Below, in pieces: positions 10,707-40,690 of a stretch of 64,000 bases of DNA. The notes beneath the pieces are model-generated. The model did not search any database, was not told the DNA's origin, and was given only the letters and a program-made list of their open reading frames with translations. A program made the position numbers and the translations under genes. The number at the start of each line of letters is the position of its first letter. The first letter of the stretch is position 1. Source of the DNA: Nitrospira sp. (GTDB lineage Bacteria; Nitrospirota; Nitrospiria; Nitrospirales; Nitrospiraceae); the NCBI GenBank assembly GCA_005116835.1, contig SWDM01000022.1, positions 62,001 to 126,000 on the forward strand, given 5' to 3'.

Positions 10707-11339
10707 ATGAAAGTAATCAACCGTGCCCTCTGCGCTGTTGCCTCTGGTCTGTGCGTCGCGCTGTCCTTCACCGCTTGTGGCAGCGGGGGCAGCAGTAGCA
10801 GCACTCCGCCCCCTGCAGCTGCGAGCCCGGCTACCATCACCACCGTGGCGGGCACGGGAGTCGCGGGGTTTAGTGGGGATACCATGGCGGCTACTGCGGC
10901 CCAATTGCGCAATCCCAGTGGCGTGGCCGTCGATGCGGCGGGCAATTTGTGGATTGCGGATCAAGACAACCACCGCATCCGAAAGGTCGACGTTGCGACC
11001 GGCGAAATTACCACCGTGGCGGGCACGGTAGGCTTTGGGTTTAATGGGGATAACAAAGCAGCCACTGCGGCCCAATTGTACGCTCCCAGTGGCGTGGCCG
11101 TTAATGCGGCGGGCGATTTGTGGATTGCCGATCTCAGCAACGACCGCATCCGAAAGGTCGACGCTGCGACCGGCACCATCACCACCGTGGCGGGCACGGG
11201 AGTCTCGGGGGCTTTAGGGGATAACGGCCCGGCTACTGCGGCCCAATTGTTCAATCCCATTGGCGTGGCCGTTAATGCGGCGGGCGATTTGTGGATTGCC
11301 GATCTCAGCAACAACCGCATCCGAAAGGTCGAGCCGTAA
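10707..11339 (+). CDS. NHL-repeat lipoprotein with three near-identical repeats
   Basis: 210-residue predicted lipoprotein. The signal peptide ends in FTAC followed by a Gly/Ser/Pro linker. The rest is three NHL-type beta-propeller blades of exactly 57 residues, each with TTVAGT, GFSGD-like, ATAAQL, P.GVAV.AAG and LWIAD...N.RIRKV motifs. Family knowledge suggests a binding propeller, but six blades usually close a ring; three could act as a dimer or be a truncated array. The start is the ATG at 10707, with GGAGG 8 nt upstream. It stops immediately after the third blade. Confidence 0.82.
   Translation: MKVINRALCAVASGLCVALSFTACGSGGSSSSTPPPAAASPATITTVAGTGVAGFSGDTMAATAAQLRNPSGVAVDAAGNLWIADQDNHRIRKVDVATGEITTVAGTVGFGFNGDNKAATAAQLYAPSGVAVNAAGDLWIADLSNDRIRKVDAATGTITTVAGTGVSGALGDNGPATAAQLFNPIGVAVNAAGDLWIADLSNNRIRKVEP
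10839..11337 (+). repeat. 171-bp tandem coding repeats (three units)
   Basis: ACCACCGTGGCGGGCACG recurs at 10839, 11010 and 11181, an exact 171-bp period inside the NHL gene. Units 2 and 3 are the most alike at DNA level, suggesting recent duplication or gene conversion. Confidence 0.88.
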
Positions 11340-11766
11340 CCTGCGCGGGGGCGACGGAGTCCGAGAGAGGAAGGGCTCCGTGCCCACGTCAGGAAAGCGA
11401 CGGAGGCTCAGGGCGGTTACATTGCGTCAAGTAGTGGCGCCGTCTCTGTGTGCCAGACAAGGGAACGACTGCTGAGCGTGGCACGAAAGTCCGGTGCTGC
11501 TCTGGCAACCAGGGCAGCAGGCCGAGGGTGCATGACGCCGAGAAAAACAAAATGGTCAGGAATTTCCGTTTGACGTCCGAGCGAGTGGAGCAGGCGCCGT
11601 CACCATTTTTGGAATCTCCGCGAATTGAGTCTGCCGGGAAGCTGACCGCTACATTCTCCTCCCACCGAACATCGATCACCTGCGCGATGCACCGTTATGT
11701 CGCAGGACGCAAAACAGGGCGAATTGTTAAGAGCATAGGCTTGTAGGGTCTTCCACACTTCCCTCT
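11340..11766. other. non-coding stretch with several short hairpins
   Basis: No supportable gene. The left part (about 11371-11530) is rich in short stems: CTCCGT/ACGGAG, GTGCCA/TGGCAC and GCTGCTCTGG-CAAC-CAGGGCAGC. The remainder (11530-11760) shows nothing recognisable. Confidence 0.5.
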
Positions 11767-11878
11767 AGGGCGGCCTGTTTTACTCCCGAACTGCGAGCAA
11801 GAAGGGCACCTGACCTCTCCCTCCCACTCTTCCGCAACCGCGCGTTGCGCGATCAAGGGGAGTAAACAGGCCGCCCCT
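11767..11878. repeat. family A-related hairpin, copy A3
   Basis: AGGGCGGCCTGTTTTACTCC at the left pairs with GGAGTAAACAGGCCGCCC at the right. The loop keeps CGAGCAAGAAGGGCACC and CGCGCGTTGCGCGATC, both family A fragments, but the arms are unlike other copies. Confidence 0.75.
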
Positions 11879-11956
11879 ACGTCTAGTCGAGTTGACGCAG
11901 TCTGTAGAACGACGTAGCTTGTCGCTAGCTTTTGAACCATAGGAGGAGGAATTACC

Positions 11957-12283
11957 ATGGGACTGCAACCGTTACAGGATTGGGCGCTGATCGACCCGTT
12001 GGAGGCCAAGGGCAAAACTGCCGGGGGGCTGGTCATTCCAGATACAGCAAAGGAGAAGCCTATCGAAGGTATGGTTCTGGCGGTGGGGAAAGGTCGCTGG
12101 GACACACCTGAAATGAAGTTGGGTCGTATGTCAAAAAAGAAAGAGGATAAGGTATTCAATCCCACCGTCCTTCAACCGGGCGATCGAGTCCTCTATGAGA
12201 AATTCGGAACAACCGAAATCGATCTGGACGGCAAGGAGCTGGTTCTCGTCCGAGAGTCAGATGTCTTGGGTTTGCTGGGGTAA
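11957..12283 (+). CDS. groES: co-chaperonin GroES-like protein, without GroEL neighbour
   Basis: 108-residue Cpn10 family member. The N-terminal strand (LQPLQDWALIDPLEAKGKT), a mobile loop with GGLVIPDTAKEKP (about 22-37) and the GDRVLYEKFGTTEIDLDGKELVLVRESD core are all present. A charged insert of about 20 residues (RWDTPEMKLGRMSKKKEDK) follows AVGKG, making it longer than typical GroES. It has a strong AGGAGGAGG ribosome binding site. No groEL is adjacent, so it is either a second co-chaperonin or one uncoupled from its chaperonin gene. The GroES fold is clear; the role is inferred. Confidence 0.88.
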   Translation: MGLQPLQDWALIDPLEAKGKTAGGLVIPDTAKEKPIEGMVLAVGKGRWDTPEMKLGRMSKKKEDKVFNPTVLQPGDRVLYEKFGTTEIDLDGKELVLVRESDVLGLLG

Positions 12284-12315
12284 TGTAACGATAGGGTCGG
12301 GATTATTTCAGTCAC

Positions 12316-12339
12316 GGCAGGGGGCCTGCGCCCCCTGCC
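12316..12339. terminator. likely bidirectional terminator hairpin
   Basis: Perfect 10-bp stem GGCAGGGGGC / GCCCCCTGCC with a four-base loop, midway between the convergent groES and DUF1566 genes. There is no clear U-tract on either side. Confidence 0.6.
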
Positions 12340-12370
12340 CCTAAGCGACAGCGCTTCAATCATCACACGC

Positions 12371-13027
12371 TTAATAAGTAGACTCGCTCATAGAGCCACG
12401 CACACACCAGACGTTGTTGCTATTGCTCTTACTGGTGCTGCCCACTGTGCCTGCCCCTAAATCTACACTAAACTTATTGTTGGAACTGCCAGCAATGCTC
12501 GTGGCCGACCAATAGTTACCAGGCTGCACGCCTGTAAACATGTTCATCGGGACATACGGCGCCCCAAGCGATGGATCCATCAGGCTTGTCAATTCTGCCA
12601 CGGAGGGTAGTCGCCAACCTCGAGCGCCTCCGACCGGTTTATTGAGACAGTGGAAGCGCGCAATATCCCAATCCATCGTCATGCTGGGCGTTTGTTCCCA
12701 CACCAGTCCGGTGTTATTGTCCCTCACAGCTGTGCCGTTAAATTCTGCTAAAACTGTATAGCGAGCGGTTGACGGTTTGTTGGTATCCCATCGCGATGTG
12801 TAATTCCCTTCCTCGCCACCCCCGCCGGCGCCATTGAGCTTCAAAAGCACCTCGTCGAGTTTGAGCAATATCTGTTTGAATGGGTTCAGATGGTGATTCT
12901 GATGTTTGTTGTTATCGTGAGCCTCTGCGGGCGTAATCCCTCCGCCGTACCCTGCCAAAGCAAGACTGCCGATAAGAGCTACCCCACCGACTCCACTCAG
13001 CCATTTGCTTCGTTTGCTTCGCATCAT
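12371..13027 (-). CDS. secreted DUF1566 (Lcl C-terminal domain) protein
   Basis: 218-residue exported protein. The signal peptide is MMRSKRSKWLSGVGGVALIG onward, ending near AEA-HD. A His-rich stretch and a short amphipathic helix (FKQILLKLDEVLLKLNG) precede a DUF1566/Lcl-type domain with the hallmarks NTGLVWEQTP, ARFHCLN, GWRLPSVAELTSLMD, YWSAT and WCVRG. This domain is common in Nitrospira and Deltaproteobacteria and is thought to be an extracellular FGE/C-type-lectin-like fold. The start is backed by AAGGAGGAA five bases upstream. It converges on groES across the terminator hairpin. Confidence 0.82.
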   Translation of the reverse strand: MMRSKRSKWLSGVGGVALIGSLALAGYGGGITPAEAHDNNKHQNHHLNPFKQILLKLDEVLLKLNGAGGGGEEGNYTSRWDTNKPSTARYTVLAEFNGTAVRDNNTGLVWEQTPSMTMDWDIARFHCLNKPVGGARGWRLPSVAELTSLMDPSLGAPYVPMNMFTGVQPGNYWSATSIAGSSNNKFSVDLGAGTVGSTSKSNSNNVWCVRGSMSESTY

Positions 13028-13159
13028 CTTGTTCCTCCTTGGTGATGTGATGAGTACACGGCTGACTAACCCTGGCCCCTGCGACGTCGTCTGCGACGCT
13101 GCTCTTGGAATGATTCTGTAACTTGCCTTGCCGGTTCGCTGTACCCCATTTTCTTGGAC

Positions 13160-13654
13160 CTACTTCTCTGACCTACCCTCTGTTTCTTGATCAATCGCCC
13201 AGTGCCGCTCGATGATCTCCATCGCCTTTATCCTGACGTCGTCGTTTTCGTCATCCAGCGCAACGACCAGTGGCCCGAGTGGAGCTTGGGGCCCCTGTTG
13301 TGCCCAGGTATCGAGCGCCTGGATCCTCACGGAGACTTCCGGAGCATCCAACGCCTGTGCGATCCAGACTGGTACGGCCAGATGCTCCGGCTGCGGAGGT
13401 ACCTCTACTTGCGTTGGAGCCGGCGTATGACTCAATTCGGAGGGCCTGCCGACGACTGAAGCCACTGAGTTATTGATCGGCGCCCAAGGGTGTTGCGTAA
13501 CGGATTGTGATGTGGATGACGCGCTGAGGCCAGCGCGCGAGCCCTGGCCCTGTGAGTAGTCTGGCGAGGCAGGGCCACAGCCAGACAATCCAGCAAGACC
13601 GACAGACAACATACCTATAATTACGCCTGAACTTGCGAGCCCAAGGGCCTTCAT
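13160..13654 (-). CDS. lipoprotein with HEAT-like repeat
   Basis: 164-residue predicted lipoprotein with a signal peptide ending in lipobox LSGC (near residue 26). A low-complexity Ser/Pro/Gln linker of about 65 residues leads to a helical C-terminus with two HEAT-like units (IAQALDAPEVSVRIQALDTW and VVALDDENDDVRIKAMEIIE), of the kind used as protein-interaction scaffolds. It has the same orientation as the DUF1566 gene, 132 bp upstream of it, so co-transcription is possible. The partner is unknown. Confidence 0.7.
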   Translation of the reverse strand: MKALGLASSGVIIGMLSVGLAGLSGCGPASPDYSQGQGSRAGLSASSTSQSVTQHPWAPINNSVASVVGRPSELSHTPAPTQVEVPPQPEHLAVPVWIAQALDAPEVSVRIQALDTWAQQGPQAPLGPLVVALDDENDDVRIKAMEIIERHWAIDQETEGRSEK

Positions 13655-14033
13655 AATAAGGAGTCCTCTGTATAATTCAGTACTGCCTCAGTTCCCGTCT
13701 TCTACCCCTGCCAATGCGCAATCGCCATGCCATCGTGCAATGAAAACCGGTGCGGCTATAACCCATGATTTACCAGCCCCTTGTCTTTTTAATGCCAGGG
13801 ATTGGCGGAAAGCTGTTCCGAGACGAGCGGTAGAAGTGCGGAAAATGGTCTGTCTGAAGGACAGAAATTGGCAAATCGGCCTGTACCAATGGCTGGCAGC
13901 CATCGGCCACAGTTCCTCTCGCTGGTCCTTCGTGCTATTGCCTATACGAGGAACGGTTAGTTGACAGGGTCGTTGCCATATCAGTAGCCTGGCATCGTTT
14001 CCTGTGCCTTCCTTCACCGAGCTGGGGCATTTT
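13655..14033. other. intergenic region between divergent genes
   Basis: About 380 bp with no supportable gene on either strand. Open frames here overlap each other and lack ribosome binding sites. It presumably holds the divergent promoters of the HEAT lipoprotein and the DUF3422 gene. Confidence 0.45.
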
Positions 14034-15413
14034 ATGAATGAGCCGGAACATACCGATCCTGATGCAGTCGAGCTTATTCGGAAGCTACACGAGCGGCCGC
14101 AGATGCTCTGGGCCAAGTGGTTGCAGGCCCCTGCGCACGTACATTACAAAACGTTTCGCATGAGCGATCCGCCGGTACAGCGCCCGGCGAGCCGTCATGA
14201 GTTTAAGATGTTCCTCGATGCCTTCAAGGTCTCAGCGGATGAGATGGTCGTCCAGGACGCATTCGGCTATGGTATGAAGTCGGCGAAGAACGGCGATCGG
14301 CTGATCGTCATCTGGCAAACCCATACGGAGTACTACAGTTATCAAATCTGGCATCTTCCCACTGATCGGAGTGAAGGAGTGGCCTTTGGTCCGATGGCCT
14401 TCCCTGACTATCGCTTTCCAATCACCCCGCTCGGCGCAGAAGTATGCCACTTGGATATCGTGCTTATGGTTGAGCCCTTGCCTGACAGCGAGGACTTGCG
14501 TCCACAATTTCCCGGACCGGTAATTTATGGTAGCCGAATTCTCGATGATGAGACCTCGCTGGTGACCAGCTTTACCCCGGACGAGTATGGCCGCGAACGT
14601 TATAGGGTCACTGTAGGCTCGGGTAAGTCGAGTCGGTCTCACGTGAAAGATATCGTCGATGCGATTGTCCGGATCGAAACCTACTACCATTTGATACTCA
14701 TGCAGAAGCCGTTGTTCTCTGCTGCGGTCGATCAGGCTTACAAGTACGAACAGGTGCATTTGAAACAGCGTGAAATCATCAGCGGACATATCGGCCACGC
14801 CGACGCCCAGACGCTACAACGTTGGCTCAACGGTCTGACGCAAGATCTGTTGAAAACCACCAGGCTGGCCGGCAAGCTACATTTCGAACTATCGGCTTCC
14901 GTTCCTTACGACAAGATTGTCCATCGGACGCTGGCGTCACTCAACGAGGGGACACTTCCCCTGTACCGCCCGATGTCGGAGTATGTCCTGAGCGGGATCA
15001 CCGGTGTGGCGGAGGGCTATCAACAACTTCTGAAGCGGATGGATACCCTGAGCCGCGGGTTCGAAGGGACGATCTCGATTATCCGTGCCCGCGTGGATCT
15101 CATGCTCCAATCCCAGAATCTGACGCTCCTAGCCAGCGTCGACAAGACGACGAAAAGCCAGGCCATCCTTCAATACACGGTCGAAGGCCTATCGGTTATT
15201 GTGATCGCCTATTATCTCAGCGGTCTCATGGCCTATATCTTCAAAGGGCTCCATGAGATGGGGTGGCTGCGCAGCGCGGATATTGCCGCCGCATTGTTCG
15301 TTCCGATCTCGCTCGGTATCTCCATGGGGATTACGATATTGGGGAGGAAGCTTCTCCACAAAAAATTCTCCGGCGGCATCCCGTCTGGAGCTTCAGAGAA
15401 GCCTCAAGCGTAA
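14034..15413 (+). CDS. DUF3422 family membrane-anchored protein
   Basis: 459-residue protein fitting DUF3422. It has an N-terminal HERPQ-like segment (LHERPQMLWAKWLQAPAHV), a long soluble region with a helical stretch around IRARVDLMLQSQNLTLLASVD, and two C-terminal membrane helices (YTVEGLSVIVIAYYLSGLMAY and a second from ALFVPISLGISMGITIL). The soluble part is cytoplasmic by this topology. The molecular role of the family is unknown. The ATG at 14034 starts the HERPQ region directly; a GTG at 14004 is possible but lacks a ribosome binding site. The gene is followed by repeat D1 and galE. Confidence 0.8.
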   Translation: MNEPEHTDPDAVELIRKLHERPQMLWAKWLQAPAHVHYKTFRMSDPPVQRPASRHEFKMFLDAFKVSADEMVVQDAFGYGMKSAKNGDRLIVIWQTHTEYYSYQIWHLPTDRSEGVAFGPMAFPDYRFPITPLGAEVCHLDIVLMVEPLPDSEDLRPQFPGPVIYGSRILDDETSLVTSFTPDEYGRERYRVTVGSGKSSRSHVKDIVDAIVRIETYYHLILMQKPLFSAAVDQAYKYEQVHLKQREIISGHIGHADAQTLQRWLNGLTQDLLKTTRLAGKLHFELSASVPYDKIVHRTLASLNEGTLPLYRPMSEYVLSGITGVAEGYQQLLKRMDTLSRGFEGTISIIRARVDLMLQSQNLTLLASVDKTTKSQAILQYTVEGLSVIVIAYYLSGLMAYIFKGLHEMGWLRSADIAAALFVPISLGISMGITILGRKLLHKKFSGGIPSGASEKPQA

Positions 15414-34380: not shown

Positions 34381-34575
34381 AGTATGACCGAGCGGGATTC
34401 TAGGAGCGCTGTGAAGATGAAGTCAAACTGAATGAGCCCACATTATGACCCATTTTCAGTTTCTCAAAATGCTGGCAATTGTCTGAAGATTCGGCTAGTT
34501 GATGGTTGACGGTATGAATACGTCAACTACGCAACGCGCAATCAAGTCGGATGATATGACAGGGAGGAAATGCAG

Positions 34576-36495
34576 ATGGGAAGAACACCGATTACAACTG
34601 GAAGAGAAAAAAAGCGCGGTAGCTCCACGATGCCAAAACGTAGCGCGGTTCCAGATCGGTTAGATCTGCGCGACAGGCTCTATCATCCCCCGGTGTCTGC
34701 GGCGCCGAACCTGGTGCTCGATCCGAATACCGATATCCCTGTGCTCAATCAAGAAGATACCAACGCCTGCACGGGATTCGCCTTAGCCAGCGTCATCTAT
34801 CACTTACAACACCGTGCGAAACGCAAGCAGGCAGATTGTTGCGTTTCCCCATTTATGTTGTATTCGATGGCGCGGCGGTATGATGAATTTCCCGGAAGCC
34901 CGAATGTCGATACAGGATCGAGTCTACGCGGCGCGATGAAGGCCTGGTACAAACACGGGGCTTGCTCAGACAGGCTCTGGACCTCGGAACAGATGCCGAC
35001 AGATCACACGGCGGATTCTTCAGACGACTGGTGGCTCGATGCTGTGCGCAGGCCTTTGGGTGCCTACTATCGCATCGATACCCGCTCCATCACCGATATG
35101 CACATCGCACTCAACGAAGTCGGCATTCTGTATGCAAGCGCAATCTGCCATTCCGGCTGGGACGATGGGCTCTCGCGGTCGTCTCAATCGAAAAGCGGTT
35201 ACCGGGTGATACCACCTCGGAAGGCAAGCCTGAGCGATGGAGGCCATGCCTTTGCAATCGTCGGCTATAACCAAGAAGGATTCATCGTCCATAACTCTTG
35301 GGGGGAGGGTTGGGGAAGAAAGGGCCGCGCAGTGTTGTCCTATGATGACTGGCTTGACAACGCGATGGATTGTTGGGTGGCCCAGTTAGGCGTAGTAACC
35401 GAGCTGCATCTGGCGATCGCGCGATCGCCGTCGCTACGTCTGGAGTCAGGCAAAGTGCAGATTGCAGGCGAGTCGTCGCTGCGCAGACGCGAGATCGGCC
35501 CCTTTATCATCGACATGGCGAATAACGGACAGCTCAGCAATACCGGCGATTTCCGCACACAGGATTCCGACATTGAGGCGCTCGTGACGCACCATATCGG
35601 CACGGCCCGAACCGCATGGGGGCTGGGCAAGAATGATCCCATGGATATCGCGATCTATGCGCATGGCGGCCTCACGTCTGAAGATGATGCGGGCGAGACG
35701 GCAGCGAAATGGATTCCGGCTTTATATGATCACCAGATATTTCCCATCTTCCTCATGTGGGAAACAGACCTCTGGACCACTCTCAAGGGGCGTCTTGAGG
35801 ATGTCTTGGAAGCCCAACCCCGTCCAACCGGCGGGTTGTTCGACGGGGCCAAGAGTTGGTGGAACGAACGACTCGAAAAACTATTGGCCGCGCCAGGCAC
35901 GGCGATCTGGAGCGAGATGAAACAAAATGCGGACGCGATCTCTAATACTGCTGAAAGCGGGGGCATGAAGCTCTATAGAGCGTGCCAGCAATCGCCCTAT
36001 TTTGCCGATTTGTCCAAGGTGCGGCTGCATCTCGTCGGCCATTCTGCGGGATCGATCCTGCACAGTCATGTCGTCGATCGGCTGGGTGGGCAGGGCTGGA
36101 CGTTCGAAAGCGTGAACTTCATGGCGCCGGCCGTACGAGTCGACCTGTTCGAGCAGACGGTCGTCCCGGCTATTAAGAACGGGAAGGTCAAACGGTTCAA
36201 TCAATTCCATTTATCCGACGACATGGAACAGAAGGATCCGACTTGCAAACCGATTCTGGGCTATAGCCGATCACTCCTCTATTTGGTGTCGCAGTCGCTT
36301 GAACATGGCAAATCCACACCGATACTCGGCCTGGAGAAGGATTTCAATGACAAGATCGGAACGAAGAATTTGCCGAACGTCGCTACCTGGGCCGCGCCAG
36401 GCAAGGAATCGAAAAGCACGACGCACGGAGGATTCGACGACGATCAGGTCACGATGGCAAGTATCATTGGCCTGATGAAGGGGAAGCGGCCCTAG
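34576..36495 (+). CDS. papain-like cysteine peptidase fused to an alpha/beta hydrolase
   Basis: 639-residue cytosolic two-domain protein with no signal or membrane segment. Residues about 25-275 form a C1-type peptidase: Gln-Cys pair in LNQEDTNACTGFA (Q59, C65), catalytic His in DGGHAFAIVGYN (H224) and Asn in HNSWGEGWG (N240). Residues about 330-635 look like a lipase/esterase-type alpha/beta hydrolase, with AHGG oxyanion strand (362-365), nucleophile elbow GHSAG (Ser 490) and a late His in STTHGGFDD. The ATG at 34576 has a GGGAGG eight bases upstream; the ATG at 34570 is too close. It stands alone between repeats. Its target is unknown; a role in stress or defence is speculation. Confidence 0.8.
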   Translation: MGRTPITTGREKKRGSSTMPKRSAVPDRLDLRDRLYHPPVSAAPNLVLDPNTDIPVLNQEDTNACTGFALASVIYHLQHRAKRKQADCCVSPFMLYSMARRYDEFPGSPNVDTGSSLRGAMKAWYKHGACSDRLWTSEQMPTDHTADSSDDWWLDAVRRPLGAYYRIDTRSITDMHIALNEVGILYASAICHSGWDDGLSRSSQSKSGYRVIPPRKASLSDGGHAFAIVGYNQEGFIVHNSWGEGWGRKGRAVLSYDDWLDNAMDCWVAQLGVVTELHLAIARSPSLRLESGKVQIAGESSLRRREIGPFIIDMANNGQLSNTGDFRTQDSDIEALVTHHIGTARTAWGLGKNDPMDIAIYAHGGLTSEDDAGETAAKWIPALYDHQIFPIFLMWETDLWTTLKGRLEDVLEAQPRPTGGLFDGAKSWWNERLEKLLAAPGTAIWSEMKQNADAISNTAESGGMKLYRACQQSPYFADLSKVRLHLVGHSAGSILHSHVVDRLGGQGWTFESVNFMAPAVRVDLFEQTVVPAIKNGKVKRFNQFHLSDDMEQKDPTCKPILGYSRSLLYLVSQSLEHGKSTPILGLEKDFNDKIGTKNLPNVATWAAPGKESKSTTHGGFDDDQVTMASIIGLMKGKRP

Positions 36496-36636: not shown

Positions 36637-37017
36637 TCAGGCTGCTTTCTTGATGTGATGCTCTACCAGTTCGCCGGATGGAGTTTTGAGAGCTTCTCTA
36701 TCAACTGCTTGCATCTTGAGCTGCAACAGATTTTGTTCGAGTTCACGGATCAGCTGATCCCGCTCGGCTAATTGCAGCTCAACTTGGTGGAGTCCAGCTG
36801 CCGGGCTCTCGACTCCCTGCAACTTCGAAGTGGCCTCTCTCAGCTCATATCGCGCCTTCTCCAACATCTGTTCTTTGATGCGCATCATGGCTGTGACATC
36901 AGCGAGCAGTTGGCCGGTCTTACCGGCGGACACATGTCTCAGCAACCACCCGACTGCTCCGCCGATTCCAGCCGCAATGAGAAGGCATCCCAGCATTTGA
37001 TTCATGAACATCGTCAT
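36637..37017 (-). CDS. membrane-anchored coiled-coil protein, short paralog
   Basis: 126 residues. A glycine-rich N-terminal membrane helix (MLGCLLIAAGIGGAVGWLLRH) is followed by an alpha-helical coiled coil (MRIKEQMLEKARYELREATS, then LQLAERDQLIRELEQNLLQLK). It is a shortened relative of the 440-residue protein at 38511-39833, matching its first 70 or so residues but lacking the long coil and C-terminal helix-hairpin-helix domain. Its ATG overlaps the stop of the upstream BON-OmpA gene (ATGA), so the two are translationally coupled. Probable inner-membrane tether in an envelope module. Confidence 0.75.
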   Translation of the reverse strand: MTMFMNQMLGCLLIAAGIGGAVGWLLRHVSAGKTGQLLADVTAMMRIKEQMLEKARYELREATSKLQGVESPAAGLHQVELQLAERDQLIRELEQNLLQLKMQAVDREALKTPSGELVEHHIKKAA

Positions 37018-38075
37018 AACTCCGGCTGTCCTTTTAATACCAGTTCGATTCGCCGGTTACGTTGAAGGCCGGCTCGATTTTCTCTTACGGTCAACGGGCG
37101 TGAGGCGCCGTAGCCCACGGCAGTGAACTGGTTGCTCAAGCCGTGTTTGGTCAAGTAGCGGCGCACTGAGTCGGCACGACGGCGGCTGAGCTGAAGGTTA
37201 TACTCTGGCTCACCGTACTTATCGGTATGCCCACCGATCTCGATGATCGCGTGGGGGGATTGCCGCAATTCGGCAATCAACTGGTCTAGTGTGACAAGAC
37301 TGGCGGGAGTCATCGTTGCGCTCTTCGATTCGAACTCAATGGAAGAACGAGCGAGAATCTCATTCAACCTTGTTTGAATCGAGGCTGGCGCGATCGCAAC
37401 CTGCGATGGAGGGTCAGGTAAGGAAGGGCTTGTGGACGCCTTTGCTAAAGAGGCTTTCGGCAATGGCATTGGTAGCGCGATGGCCTTCTGGGGCAAAGCC
37501 GCCGCGACGGAAGCCGTCGGGGCGGAAAGTTTATGCGAAGGGGCCCCTGCCTGAGCAAGAGTCTTCGAAGAGGATGTCTTGCTGGACCTCCCAGCTGTGA
37601 TAGGACCGGTGAGAATGCGATCCTCCAGTTGCAGCCCTGTCTGCGTCAGTGGGGCGAGGTCTCGTAGCACCGCGGCTTTGTCACGCTCGCCGCCGACCTG
37701 GCCGGTTACGACGATTGTGCGGCCATCGATGATGATGGAGCCTCGCTCTGTCATCTGACCTAAAATCGGGAGGACTTGGGAGATGTTGTCGGCCCAGGCG
37801 ACCGATACCACCCTCGGATCCACCTCCAACTCATCGACAATTTTGCCCGGTGTCGTACCATAGAGTTCTCCGGCTCGCTGAATAATCGAGGCCTTGCTCG
37901 TCTCACTGGGGAGCGAGCCTCGCAGTATCAACATTCCATACTCGACTCGCGCATGAAAGTTTGCAGGGGGCGCAATAGCCGATACCGCCGGTGTGACAGC
38001 ATGCTGTGGGAGACAGAGGAAGGCGAGGAGAGCAAATGCTGCAATTCCTGCTGCTACAATGGCTGCACTCTTCAT
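37014..38075 (-). CDS. BON-OmpA family envelope protein, downstream copy
   Basis: 353-residue exported protein with an N-terminal hydrophobic anchor or signal (AIVAAGIAAFALLAFLCLP). BON-like segments follow (FHARVEYGMLILRGSLPSE and GSIIIDGRTIVVTGQVG), then a Pro/Ala/Ser linker (about 165-225) and a C-terminal OmpA-like peptidoglycan-binding domain (IEIGGHTDKYG, NLQLSRRRADSVRRYL, VGYGASRPL, NRRIEL). It likely bridges membrane and peptidoglycan. It is a paralog of 39830-40690, which lacks the long linker. Its stop overlaps the start of the short coiled-coil gene. Confidence 0.86.
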   Translation of the reverse strand: MKSAAIVAAGIAAFALLAFLCLPQHAVTPAVSAIAPPANFHARVEYGMLILRGSLPSETSKASIIQRAGELYGTTPGKIVDELEVDPRVVSVAWADNISQVLPILGQMTERGSIIIDGRTIVVTGQVGGERDKAAVLRDLAPLTQTGLQLEDRILTGPITAGRSSKTSSSKTLAQAGAPSHKLSAPTASVAAALPQKAIALPMPLPKASLAKASTSPSLPDPPSQVAIAPASIQTRLNEILARSSIEFESKSATMTPASLVTLDQLIAELRQSPHAIIEIGGHTDKYGEPEYNLQLSRRRADSVRRYLTKHGLSNQFTAVGYGASRPLTVRENRAGLQRNRRIELVLKGQPEL

Positions 38076-38510: not shown

Positions 38511-39833
38511 TCAGATCTGTTCACCATACTTGCGGTAATGTTCTTTTTTTGCTTCACTGACCCAATTGTCGCGTTTGATTCGTTCAGGGGCGGTATAGAG
38601 TTTCTTTGCAACCTTCTCGATATCCTCAGGTGTCCAGCGAGCAATCTGGATATAGGTATGTAACCCCATCTTGTTCAGCGTCCGCGCAAAGACGGGGCCG
38701 ATCCCATGGATCTTGCTGAGGTCGTCTTTGGATCCGTCTTTTGGTCCGGTTTTTACCGGCTTCGTCTGTTCGATCTCCAGGCTCAATTGACTCCCACTGA
38801 GACGGGTTTTTCGTCGCAGATCCCCAACCTCCCCCTCGGTTTTAATACGAAGCGCTGCCTGCACATCAGCAAGCCGCTTTTGGAGGCGGGTGATTTCCTC
38901 ATCTTTTTTCGCTGCCGGCTCGACCAGGCTTGCCTGGGTTTGCTGTTGCTCTTCAAGTTCGTGAATTCGATGCTGCAGGCTCTTCAGCTGCATGGCTCTC
39001 TCATGCAGAAGTTGTTCATCGAGCTGGTGTTGGATCTGGAGTTGGCTCTGCGTTGCCAGGGATTTTTGCAGTTTTTCTATCTGGGCTTCATGTTGAGAGA
39101 GGGCCTGGGCATATTTCGCGTCCCACTCCGCGAGAGACGTTTCCTGTTCTTTTAGCTGCTGCTGAAAATGTTCGAGTGAAGCGATGCGTCGATCTCGTTC
39201 GGCGAGTTGGCTCTCCAGGCGGTGCAGGACTGCGCGATGCTCGGCCTCTCGATCACTGAGTTTGACTTCCAGCCAATGGACCCTACCTTGAGCCGGTTCA
39301 AGTTCCGTGACGCGCGCGCGGAGCCGGTCTGTTTCTAACGCTGCTGCTTCTAACTCGGCAAGACGCTGCTGTAAGTCCAGGAGTTCTTGCGCATTCGTCG
39401 CAACCACAGGCCCATTGTCGGTGGCTTGGGGAACACCTTGCTCCTGCGCCATTGCAACGGCCGGGTCATGATTTCCTATGCGCCGCTGGCCGGAGGCTTC
39501 TTCTGCTTCCAGTGCCGACAGTCGCTGCGTGCGAACGGCCAGTTCCTCTTGAAGGGCCTGCAAGCGATCGTTCCCTGTCGAGAGTTCCTGTTTGGTGGAT
39601 TCGTTCAACTCCTCCGATTCGACGAGCTTACTTTCGAGTAGCTGCATTTCTTCAGTTTGGGCCTTCAACGTCTGCCGAGCCTTCTCCAACAACTGCTCCT
39701 TTACTCGAAGGGTAGCCGTGACATGCTCCGATAGTTGGTCTGTGGATAATCGCCTCAGCAACCACCCAATTACGCCACCGATTCCTGCCGCGATGAAGAG
39801 ACATCCCAGTATTTCGCCGATGAGTGCGATCAT
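38511..39833 (-). CDS. membrane-anchored coiled-coil protein with C-terminal helix-hairpin-helix domain
   Basis: 440 residues. The N-terminal membrane helix (ILGCLFIAAGIGGVIGWLLRR) is followed by about 300 residues of Gln/Glu/Leu-rich coiled coil, then a helix-hairpin-helix type domain (SKIHGIGPVFARTLNKMGLH and DIEKVAKKLYTAPERI) like that found at the end of many uncharacterised envelope and ribosomal-L21-type fusion proteins. The combination suggests a tether reaching from the membrane to DNA or another partner; whether the domain faces cytosol or periplasm is not clear from sequence. ATGA overlap with the BON-OmpA gene upstream. Confidence 0.82.
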   Translation of the reverse strand: MIALIGEILGCLFIAAGIGGVIGWLLRRLSTDQLSEHVTATLRVKEQLLEKARQTLKAQTEEMQLLESKLVESEELNESTKQELSTGNDRLQALQEELAVRTQRLSALEAEEASGQRRIGNHDPAVAMAQEQGVPQATDNGPVVATNAQELLDLQQRLAELEAAALETDRLRARVTELEPAQGRVHWLEVKLSDREAEHRAVLHRLESQLAERDRRIASLEHFQQQLKEQETSLAEWDAKYAQALSQHEAQIEKLQKSLATQSQLQIQHQLDEQLLHERAMQLKSLQHRIHELEEQQQTQASLVEPAAKKDEEITRLQKRLADVQAALRIKTEGEVGDLRRKTRLSGSQLSLEIEQTKPVKTGPKDGSKDDLSKIHGIGPVFARTLNKMGLHTYIQIARWTPEDIEKVAKKLYTAPERIKRDNWVSEAKKEHYRKYGEQI

Positions 39834-40690
39834 AGGTCACTCGTTCCCTTTATGCGTAATTCGATCCGCCGATTCTGCTGCAAACCGGCCCGGGTCTTCG
39901 CCACCGACAGCGGACGTGTGGCGCCATAACCGACGGCAGTGAACTGATTGGTCAGTCCATGCTTGATAAAGTAGCGCCGCACTGCGTCCGCGCGGCGTTG
40001 GCTGAGTTGAAGATTATAATCCGCCGCCCCGTACTTGTCAGTATGGCCTCCGATTTCAATGGTGACATGAGGAGCCTGACGGAGTACGGCGATCAGCTGG
40101 TCCAATGTCGTATGAACGCGGGGGAGTATAGTGGTGGTATTCGATTCAAACTCGATGGAGCCTTGCGTGAGAATCTCGTCTAATTTGTTCTGCAGCCCGG
40201 GGGCTGGAGCCTTGAGTTGGGCTGCGAGAATATGATCTTCCAGCTCGAGCCCTGTTTGTGTCAGCGGAGCGATGTCTTGCAGCATGGTGGCCTTGGCACG
40301 ATCGCTGTCGACCTGCCCACTGAGCACGACCGATCGCCCATCGATGATGATCGAGCCGCGGTTTTTCATCTGCCCCAAGATCGGAAGGATTTTGGAAACG
40401 TTGCCGATCCAGGCTGAAGATCCCACTTTCGGATCCACCGTCAGTTCGTCGACCACCCGGCCACGCGTTGCTCCATATAGCTCTTGGGCGCGATGAAGGA
40501 TTGCCGCTTTGCTGCTCTCGCTGGGAAGCGAGCCACGGAGTGTCAGCGTACCGCGATCGATACGGGCATGAAAGTTTGCAGAGGCGAGGGGAGCCGATGC
40601 GGTCGTGGTCGGGAGATGACCTGGGATACAGATCGCAGCAAGAAGAGTTATTGCGACAGCGCCCGCGCCTAAAATCGCTCTGCGCATCAT
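39830..40690 (-). CDS. BON-OmpA family envelope protein, upstream copy
   Basis: 286 residues with an N-terminal hydrophobic segment (AILGAGAVAITLLAAICIPG), BON-like region (FHARIDRGTLTLRGSLPSE, GSIIIDGRSVVLSGQVD) and C-terminal OmpA-like domain (IEIGGHTDKYGAADYN, QRRADAVRRYF, VGYGATRPLS, NRRIEL). It aligns with the 37014-38075 protein over its whole length apart from the linker the latter carries. The two gene pairs therefore arose by duplication of a two-gene unit. The TGA stop overlaps the ATG of the coiled-coil gene. Confidence 0.86.
   Translation of the reverse strand: MMRRAILGAGAVAITLLAAICIPGHLPTTTASAPLASANFHARIDRGTLTLRGSLPSESSKAAILHRAQELYGATRGRVVDELTVDPKVGSSAWIGNVSKILPILGQMKNRGSIIIDGRSVVLSGQVDSDRAKATMLQDIAPLTQTGLELEDHILAAQLKAPAPGLQNKLDEILTQGSIEFESNTTTILPRVHTTLDQLIAVLRQAPHVTIEIGGHTDKYGAADYNLQLSQRRADAVRRYFIKHGLTNQFTAVGYGATRPLSVAKTRAGLQQNRRIELRIKGTSDL

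What the first reader, a model, noticed from the sequence alone, without database searches (positions are those of the whole stretch)
34576..36495. Papain-like peptidase fused to an alpha/beta hydrolase in the cytosol
Both active sites look complete (Gln-Cys-His-Asn; GHSAG plus AHGG and a late His). The fusion has no export signal and no operon partner. A cytosolic enzyme with both protease and esterase or lipase activity is unusual and could be a membrane-damage or abortive-type effector, though this is not shown.
Basis: partly seen in the sequence, partly recalled or inferred. Interest (0 to 1): 0.7.

Follow-up and report, generated by a model that had tools for sequence, protein, structure and literature searches.

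The report
Widespread protease–lipase fusion enzyme, function unknown
One bacterial gene encodes two complete enzymes in a single chain, a papain-type protease and a lipase-like hydrolase; this undescribed pairing occurs in at least eleven bacterial phyla with both active sites unchanged, but what it acts on is not known.

Summary
ORF 34576–36495 (+, 639 aa) encodes a xylellain-type C1A papain domain (~24–275) and a GHSAG α/β-hydrolase (ABH, ~285–639). AlphaFold gives both folds with good confidence. In 66 full-length homologues from ≥11 phyla, Q59/C65/H224/N240 and H363-G-G/S490/E551/D554/H617 never vary; both halves are under purifying selection. No signal peptide or TM segment was found. 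The gene is patchy and horizontally spread; within its genus it sits at one fixed site between dnaE and OmpA/purH genes. It is not in a defence island, has no recurrent partner, no PADLOC match and no eCIS link.

The best clue lies elsewhere. The same ABH family is a stand-alone gene 6 bp before a caspase gene in Mesorhizobium. In a cyanobacterium it is fused between a murein amidase and a caspase; in Rhodobacterales a degenerate copy follows trypsin–papain. So this is probably a peptidase–hydrolase pair like those of caspase-type conflict systems, with papain in the caspase's place. An effector role is plausible, not shown; a non-toxic processing enzyme remains nearly as likely. New variant of a known kind.

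The parts
34562..34567 (+). GGGAGG, likely ribosome-binding site for the ATG at 34576 (8 nt spacing)
   Evidence: read from sequence
34576..36495 (+). C1A papain–α/β-hydrolase fusion gene, 639 aa (alternative in-frame ATG at 34570)
34576..34641 (+). residues 1–22: disordered, Lys/Arg-rich N-terminal tail, similar in character in the genus
   Evidence: pLDDT <50 for residues 1–16; tail composition
34645..35400 (+). residues 24–275: xylellain-type C1A papain domain, with N-terminal PDxxDxRDxxY motif (26–36)
   Evidence: 3ois Z 28.7, rmsd 2.2, 235 aligned, 27% id; Pfam
34750..34770 (+). Gln59 (oxyanion) to Cys65 (nucleophile)
   Evidence: both invariant in 66 homologues
35245..35247 (+). His224, papain catalytic His
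   Evidence: invariant
35293..35295 (+). Asn240 of the NSWG motif
   Evidence: invariant
35428..36492 (+). residues 285–639: α/β-hydrolase domain
   Evidence: ABH-alone model pLDDT 90.8; α/β-hydrolases Z up to 13.4 over about 200 residues
35662..35670 (+). His363-Gly-Gly, probable oxyanion-hole motif
   Evidence: invariant
35770..35946 (+). residues 399–457: helical insert (candidate lid), with a low-confidence loop at 413–421 (35812–35838) and invariant Trp445
   Evidence: DSSP and pLDDT of the model; alignment; lid role inferred
36037..36051 (+). Gly488-His-Ser490-Ala-Gly, nucleophile elbow
   Evidence: H489, S490 and G492 invariant
36226..36237 (+). Glu551 to Asp554, candidates for the catalytic acid after the strand 541–546
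   Evidence: both invariant; assignment inferred from strand order
36424..36426 (+). His617, ABH catalytic His
   Evidence: invariant

Best explanation
A self-contained, cytosolic protease–lipase (or esterase) that works as a peptidase/hydrolase pair in one chain. Shown: two complete predicted folds, invariant catalytic residues, purifying selection on both halves, no export signal, cross-phylum spread, and homology of the ABH half to ABH proteins encoded next to, or fused with, caspases, trypsin and murein amidase. Inferred: the papain domain is held in check by its N-terminal segment (the xylellain-type PDxxDxRD region) until triggered; it then cuts a protein, possibly the flexible lid loop of its own or a neighbouring ABH domain; and the ABH domain hydrolyses acyl esters, probably membrane lipids or acylated proteins. 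The physiological setting would be a stress or conflict response in which proteolysis and ester hydrolysis are released together.
For: Invariant Q59/C65/H224/N240 and H363GG/S490/E551/D554/H617 over 66 homologues. dN/dS about 0.1 in both halves. Folds. Same ABH family 6 bp upstream of a caspase gene in a run with PLD-like and trypsin-like genes, Mesorhizobium (profile match E 2e-30). Amidase_2–ABH–caspase fusion in Kovacikia. Trypsin–papain–degenerate-ABH chains in Roseivivax and Paracoccus. Fusion beside caspase/GDSL and trypsin genes in R. leguminosarum and 279 bp after a caspase in Rokubacteria. Published precedent: caspase-family domains in VMAP conflict systems always have a neighbouring α/β-hydrolase gene (PMC7159879); proteases that unlock a gated effector nuclease (PMC12799240).
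Against: No sensor, NTPase, EAD or immunity partner beside the gene here or repeatedly elsewhere. Caspase adjacency among close fusions is only 1 of 44 caspase genes, P about 0.06. The gene lives stably in a core interval, unlike most defence genes. Self-cleavage, lid opening and lipid substrate are untested. A distant relative in the same genome is an ordinary lipoprotein-type hydrolase.
Confidence: 0.4

Rival explanations
1. A non-toxic accessory enzyme: a processing or scavenging hydrolase, for example turning over acylated proteins or lipoproteins by removing the acyl chain and cutting the peptide.
For: Stand-alone gene with no partner; single fixed chromosomal site kept through a genus beside dnaE and purH; no inhibitor gene, yet strongly conserved; an ABH relative in the same genome is a lipoprotein-type hydrolase.
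Against: Patchy presence (13 of 32 genus members) and cross-phylum transfer suit an accessory or conflict role better; relatives of the ABH sit with caspase, trypsin, PLD and amidase.
Confidence: 0.38
2. A released or injected antibacterial or anti-eukaryote cargo, delivered by a phage-tail-like system or by lysis, working with murein hydrolases.
For: GH19 gene directly beside the fusion in six loci; 3 of 8 GH19 genes in 50 carrier genomes lie within 600 bp of it, chance about 1e-7, or about 4e-5 counting clades. A lone tail-sheath gene follows in two Nitrosomonadales. Amidase_2 beside it in R. etli.
Against: Pvc16, an eCIS marker, is absent from this genome and from all 13 genus carriers; in the 11 of 50 other carriers that have it, it is never near the fusion: other contig in ten, about 24 kb away in one. 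Amidase_2 and CHAP are not enriched beside the fusion: 0 of 60 and 0 of 13 within 3 kb. No GH19 or sheath gene beside the window's gene.
Confidence: 0.15
3. Only one half is an enzyme; the other is a binding or regulatory domain that keeps its residues for structure.
For: In Roseivivax and Paracoccus the ABH half has lost the HGG motif, so loss is tolerated in that lineage.
Against: All catalytic residues of both halves are invariant in 66 homologues down to about 30% identity.
Confidence: 0.07

Closest known systems
Xylellain (PDB 3ois), xylellain-type single-domain C1A peptidase of Xylella fastidiosa
   Same: Papain fold, Q-C-H-N active site, PDxxDxRDxxY N-terminal segment; Z 28.7 over 235 residues
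   Different: Xylellain is a single domain; here a full α/β-hydrolase is joined to it
DUF900 (PF05990) and other exported α/β-hydrolases, including a lipoprotein-type relative in the same genome
   Same: HGG, GHSxG and late HG motif; profile match to the genome's own 530-aa lipoprotein-type protein E 7e-15; DUF900 is of unknown function (PMC11878206)
   Different: Those are separate, probably exported proteins; no DUF900 hit for the window protein itself
Caspase or trypsin plus α/β-hydrolase pairs of conflict systems (Kaur et al. 2020, PMC7159879)
   Same: A peptidase acts beside an α/β-hydrolase; the ABH of this family is the gene before a caspase in Mesorhizobium
   Different: Peptidase is papain-type, both enzymes are one chain, and no NTPase/vWA/VMAP/EAD core is present
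Protease-gated effector pairs (nuclease–protease, canu; PMC12799240)
   Same: Possible logic: a protease switches on a second enzyme
   Different: Effector there is a nuclease in a separate gene; gating is not shown here
eCIS-associated toxin EAT17 (PGAP1-like α/β-hydrolase, PMC11297309)
   Same: An α/β-hydrolase reported there as a toxin tested in yeast
   Different: No eCIS link for this family; no sequence link was tested

Membership tests
C1A papain family (xylellain type) | Gln-Cys-His-Asn active site in papain order | tested here: met
   Q59, C65, H224, N240 invariant
C1A papain family (xylellain type) | papain fold, closest to xylellain | tested here: met
   3ois Z 28.7, rmsd 2.2, 235 aligned, about 5 Z units above the next entry; E 1.8e-27 by profile
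C1A papain family (xylellain type) | peptidase activity | not testable with these tools
   needs purified protein
α/β-hydrolase superfamily, lipase/esterase-like | fold with Ser elbow, acid and His in order | tested here: met
   model and PDB matches Z up to 13.4; S490, E551/D554, H617 invariant
α/β-hydrolase superfamily, lipase/esterase-like | acyl-ester hydrolysis | not testable with these tools
   substrate unknown
DUF900 (PF05990) | passes the Pfam model | tested here: inconclusive
   no hit for the window protein; 27 of 66 homologues at E<=0.1, best 5e-5
Peptidase–ABH conflict systems (VMAP/EAD type) | peptidase paired with a neighbouring or fused α/β-hydrolase | tested here: met
   fusion here; ABH–caspase pairs of the same ABH family in Mesorhizobium and Kovacikia
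Peptidase–ABH conflict systems (VMAP/EAD type) | core NTPase, vWA, VMAP or EAD component next to it | tested here: not met
   flanking genes in the window are arginase and OmpA-type; no recurrent neighbour in 80 loci
Known anti-phage defence system | PADLOC model match | tested here: not met
   none at E<=1
Known anti-phage defence system | location in a defence island | tested here: not met
   fixed dnaE–OmpA/purH interval; few PADLOC neighbours elsewhere
eCIS cargo | eCIS genes in the genome and near the gene | tested here: not met
   no Pvc16 in the own genome; never close in other carriers

The most novel reading that the evidence does not exclude
A one-protein, horizontally spreading cell-death or lytic effector in which a papain-type protease directly switches on a lipase in the same chain, a papain counterpart of the caspase–hydrolase pairs of bacterial conflict systems, sometimes teamed with a murein hydrolase.
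Probability: 0.22. Interest if true: 0.75.

Novelty: new variant of a known kind. Interest (0 to 1): 0.48.

Why it matters
Protease-plus-second-enzyme pairs are a recurring way for bacteria to build switchable effectors, described so far as caspase or trypsin with separate partner genes. A single-chain papain–lipase version, found in at least eleven phyla and carried by cultured species (Edaphobacter, Pseudoxanthomonas, Cupriavidus, Rhizobium), could be tested with two point mutants, and would place xylellain-type peptidases, whose role in bacteria is unclear, in a concrete setting.

Tried and rejected
(1) eCIS cargo, suggested by tail-sheath and GH19 neighbours: rejected by Pvc16 presence/absence and distance. 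(2) Conserved operon partner: none; recurrent neighbours come only from sister genomes. (3) Defence-island context: PADLOC on the protein negative, on 112 neighbours sparse. (4) Caspase adjacency as an enrichment: 1 of 44, P about 0.06. (5) Amidase_2 and CHAP adjacency among core fusions: 0 of 60 and 0 of 13 within 3 kb, so the rhizobial amidase/CHAP cases remain single examples; the weak CHAP/PG-binding match beside the Edaphobacter copy L076 did not reach the CHAP family search threshold. (6) Phage origin: no full-length homologue in 50,697 phage records. (7) The distance between the two active sites could not be measured, as model coordinates are not released. (8) Structural matches of the ABH half are tied within 1–2 Z, so no substrate class is named from structure. 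(10) The GH19 queries were chosen because they were adjacent, so the unbiased family search is the one used for statistics.

Full report
Observation. The ORF at 34576–36495 (+) is real and reads 639 aa from ATG 34576 with GGGAGG 8 nt upstream. Pfam recognises the papain part (Peptidase_C1, 21.3 bits against a cut-off of 20.7) and the closest solved structure is xylellain 3ois (profile E 1.8e-27). Nothing in Pfam, NCBIfam or PADLOC names the C-terminal half in this sequence. Scanning 66 homologues one by one, all match Peptidase_C1 and 27 match DUF900, an α/β-hydrolase of unknown function.

Two folds. AlphaFold on a 59-row alignment gives mean pLDDT 86.7 and pTM 0.83. The papain domain superposes on xylellain at Z 28.7, rmsd 2.2, 235 residues. 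The ABH domain folded alone reaches pLDDT 90.8, pTM 0.91 and matches many α/β-hydrolases at Z up to 13.4 over about 200 residues; the top matches are tied, so no lipase class can be picked. A helical insert (residues 399–457) with a low-confidence loop (413–421) lies between two core strands before the nucleophile elbow and may be a lid (inference).

Conservation. Across 66 full-length homologues down to about 30% identity, Q59, C65, H224, N240 and H363-G364-G365, S490, E551, D554 and H617 are invariant. Within the genus dN/dS is about 0.10–0.13 (papain) and 0.06–0.09 (ABH) against the window gene. Both halves therefore look like working enzymes. No hydrophobic N-terminal segment was found before the domain in the window protein and almost none in homologues, consistent with a cytosolic protein.

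Distribution. In the genus, 13 of 32 genomes carry a fusion (twelve close orthologues, mostly about 78–87% identical, some incomplete or frame-broken, and one divergent copy, G002, at 40%). In the phylum it is patchy. A scan of named genomes found it in Nitrospirota, Pseudomonadota, Acidobacteriota, Bacteroidota, Ignavibacteriota, Rokubacteria, Chloroflexota, Planctomycetota, Myxococcota, Cyanobacteriota and Thermodesulfobacteriota, and on several plasmids or secondary replicons. Gallionellaceae copies are 72–74% identical to the window's, while other Nitrospirota genera are at about 30–41%. On the tree phyla are interleaved with strong support, best explained by horizontal transfer, although bins may hold foreign contigs.

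Local context. In the genus carriers examined the gene always lies between dnaE and the OmpA/g38511/purH genes; in a non-carrier (L166) dnaE and g38511 are 393 bp apart. The window around it is accA, dnaE, purH, purD, EF-G and similar genes. So it is a stably kept accessory gene at one core site, not part of a defence island. The arginase and OmpA-type flanking genes are on the opposite strand.

Context elsewhere. Around 80 homologues no gene family recurs except in close sisters; 112 neighbours fall into over a hundred Pfam families with at most two members each. One association is statistically clear: GH19 (chitinase/lysozyme-like) genes. Six loci have one directly beside the fusion. In an unbiased count, 3 of the 8 GH19 genes in 50 carrier genomes lie within 600 bp, chance about 1e-7, or about 4e-5 if the two sister lineages count once. 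Caspase (1 of 44), Amidase_2 (0 of 60) and CHAP (0 of 13) show no such signal.

The ABH family in other company. In Mesorhizobium onobrychidis the ABH is a separate gene ending 6 bp before a caspase gene, followed by PLD-like and trypsin-like genes; its homology to the fusion's ABH is clear (hhalign E 2e-30). In Kovacikia minuta one 994-aa chain holds Amidase_2, this ABH and a caspase domain. In Roseivivax and Paracoccus a trypsin domain precedes the papain domain and the ABH has lost its HGG motif. In Rhizobium leguminosarum the fusion lies beside trypsin and caspase–GDSL genes, and in R. etli beside an amidase. In the window's own genome a 530-aa lipoprotein-type ABH is a distant relative.

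Interpretation. Kaur et al. report that in VMAP conflict systems a caspase-family domain is always accompanied by a neighbouring α/β-hydrolase and suggest that the two operate together (PMC7159879). Tuck et al. show a protease unlocking a gated nuclease in several defence systems (PMC12799240). By analogy the present protein is best read as a peptidase–hydrolase pair in one chain, with papain in place of caspase. That it is an effector, that the protease opens the hydrolase, and that the substrate is membrane lipid are inferences. Stable residence in a core interval without any inhibitor or sensor gene is equally compatible with a benign processing enzyme. The eCIS-cargo reading was tested and rejected.

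Novelty. Reviews of papain-like peptidases and of α/β-hydrolases were searched for such a fusion and none was found. Public annotation names these proteins only 'C1 family peptidase'. Absence from the papers searched is not proof that it is undescribed. I rate it a new variant of a known kind.

Noticed in passing
window 36637–37017 and 37014–38075 versus 38511–40690: The 126-aa ORF matches the start of the 440-aa protein at 38511–39833, and OmpA-type genes sit beside both: apparently a partial tandem duplication of an OmpA–partner pair.
   Followed up: partly
L209:1251-2843 (own genome, contig 19): A 530-aa lipoprotein-type α/β-hydrolase with HGGL and GHSMG motifs, distant relative of the fusion's ABH; a related genome (G102) carries several such genes in a row.
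   Followed up: partly
L039:7125-9329, L041:2648-4132, L042 about 12537-14684, L005: In some genus members a second α/β-hydrolase (about 734 aa, lipoprotein-like start, GHSGG) lies next to or near the fusion gene; it is absent from the window.
   Followed up: no
L050:4466-5911 and L057:10537-12024: A lone contractile-tail sheath-like gene without other recognised tail genes follows the fusion (and a GH19 gene in L057) in Nitrosomonadales.
   Followed up: partly
L173:9789-11411, L176 about 10725-12362, L178:5187-6899: Animal-haem-peroxidase-family genes lie near the fusion in R. etli (beside a P450 gene), R. gallicum and Palleronia.
   Followed up: no
G031 contig 99, G277 contig 9, L076, L080, L081: Copies of the fusion gene that look frame-broken or split, i.e. 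decaying genes or assembly errors.
   Followed up: no
L122:1-6674 and L123:1-6846: Very large (over 2,200 aa) proteins divergent from the trypsin–papain–ABH genes in Roseivivax and Paracoccus; the Roseivivax one has no Pfam match. Possible partner in a conflict system.
   Followed up: partly
L082:11749-13176 and sister Nitrotoga loci: A protein whose sequence resembles DUF4157 lies two genes downstream of the fusion; the link was not tested.
   Followed up: no
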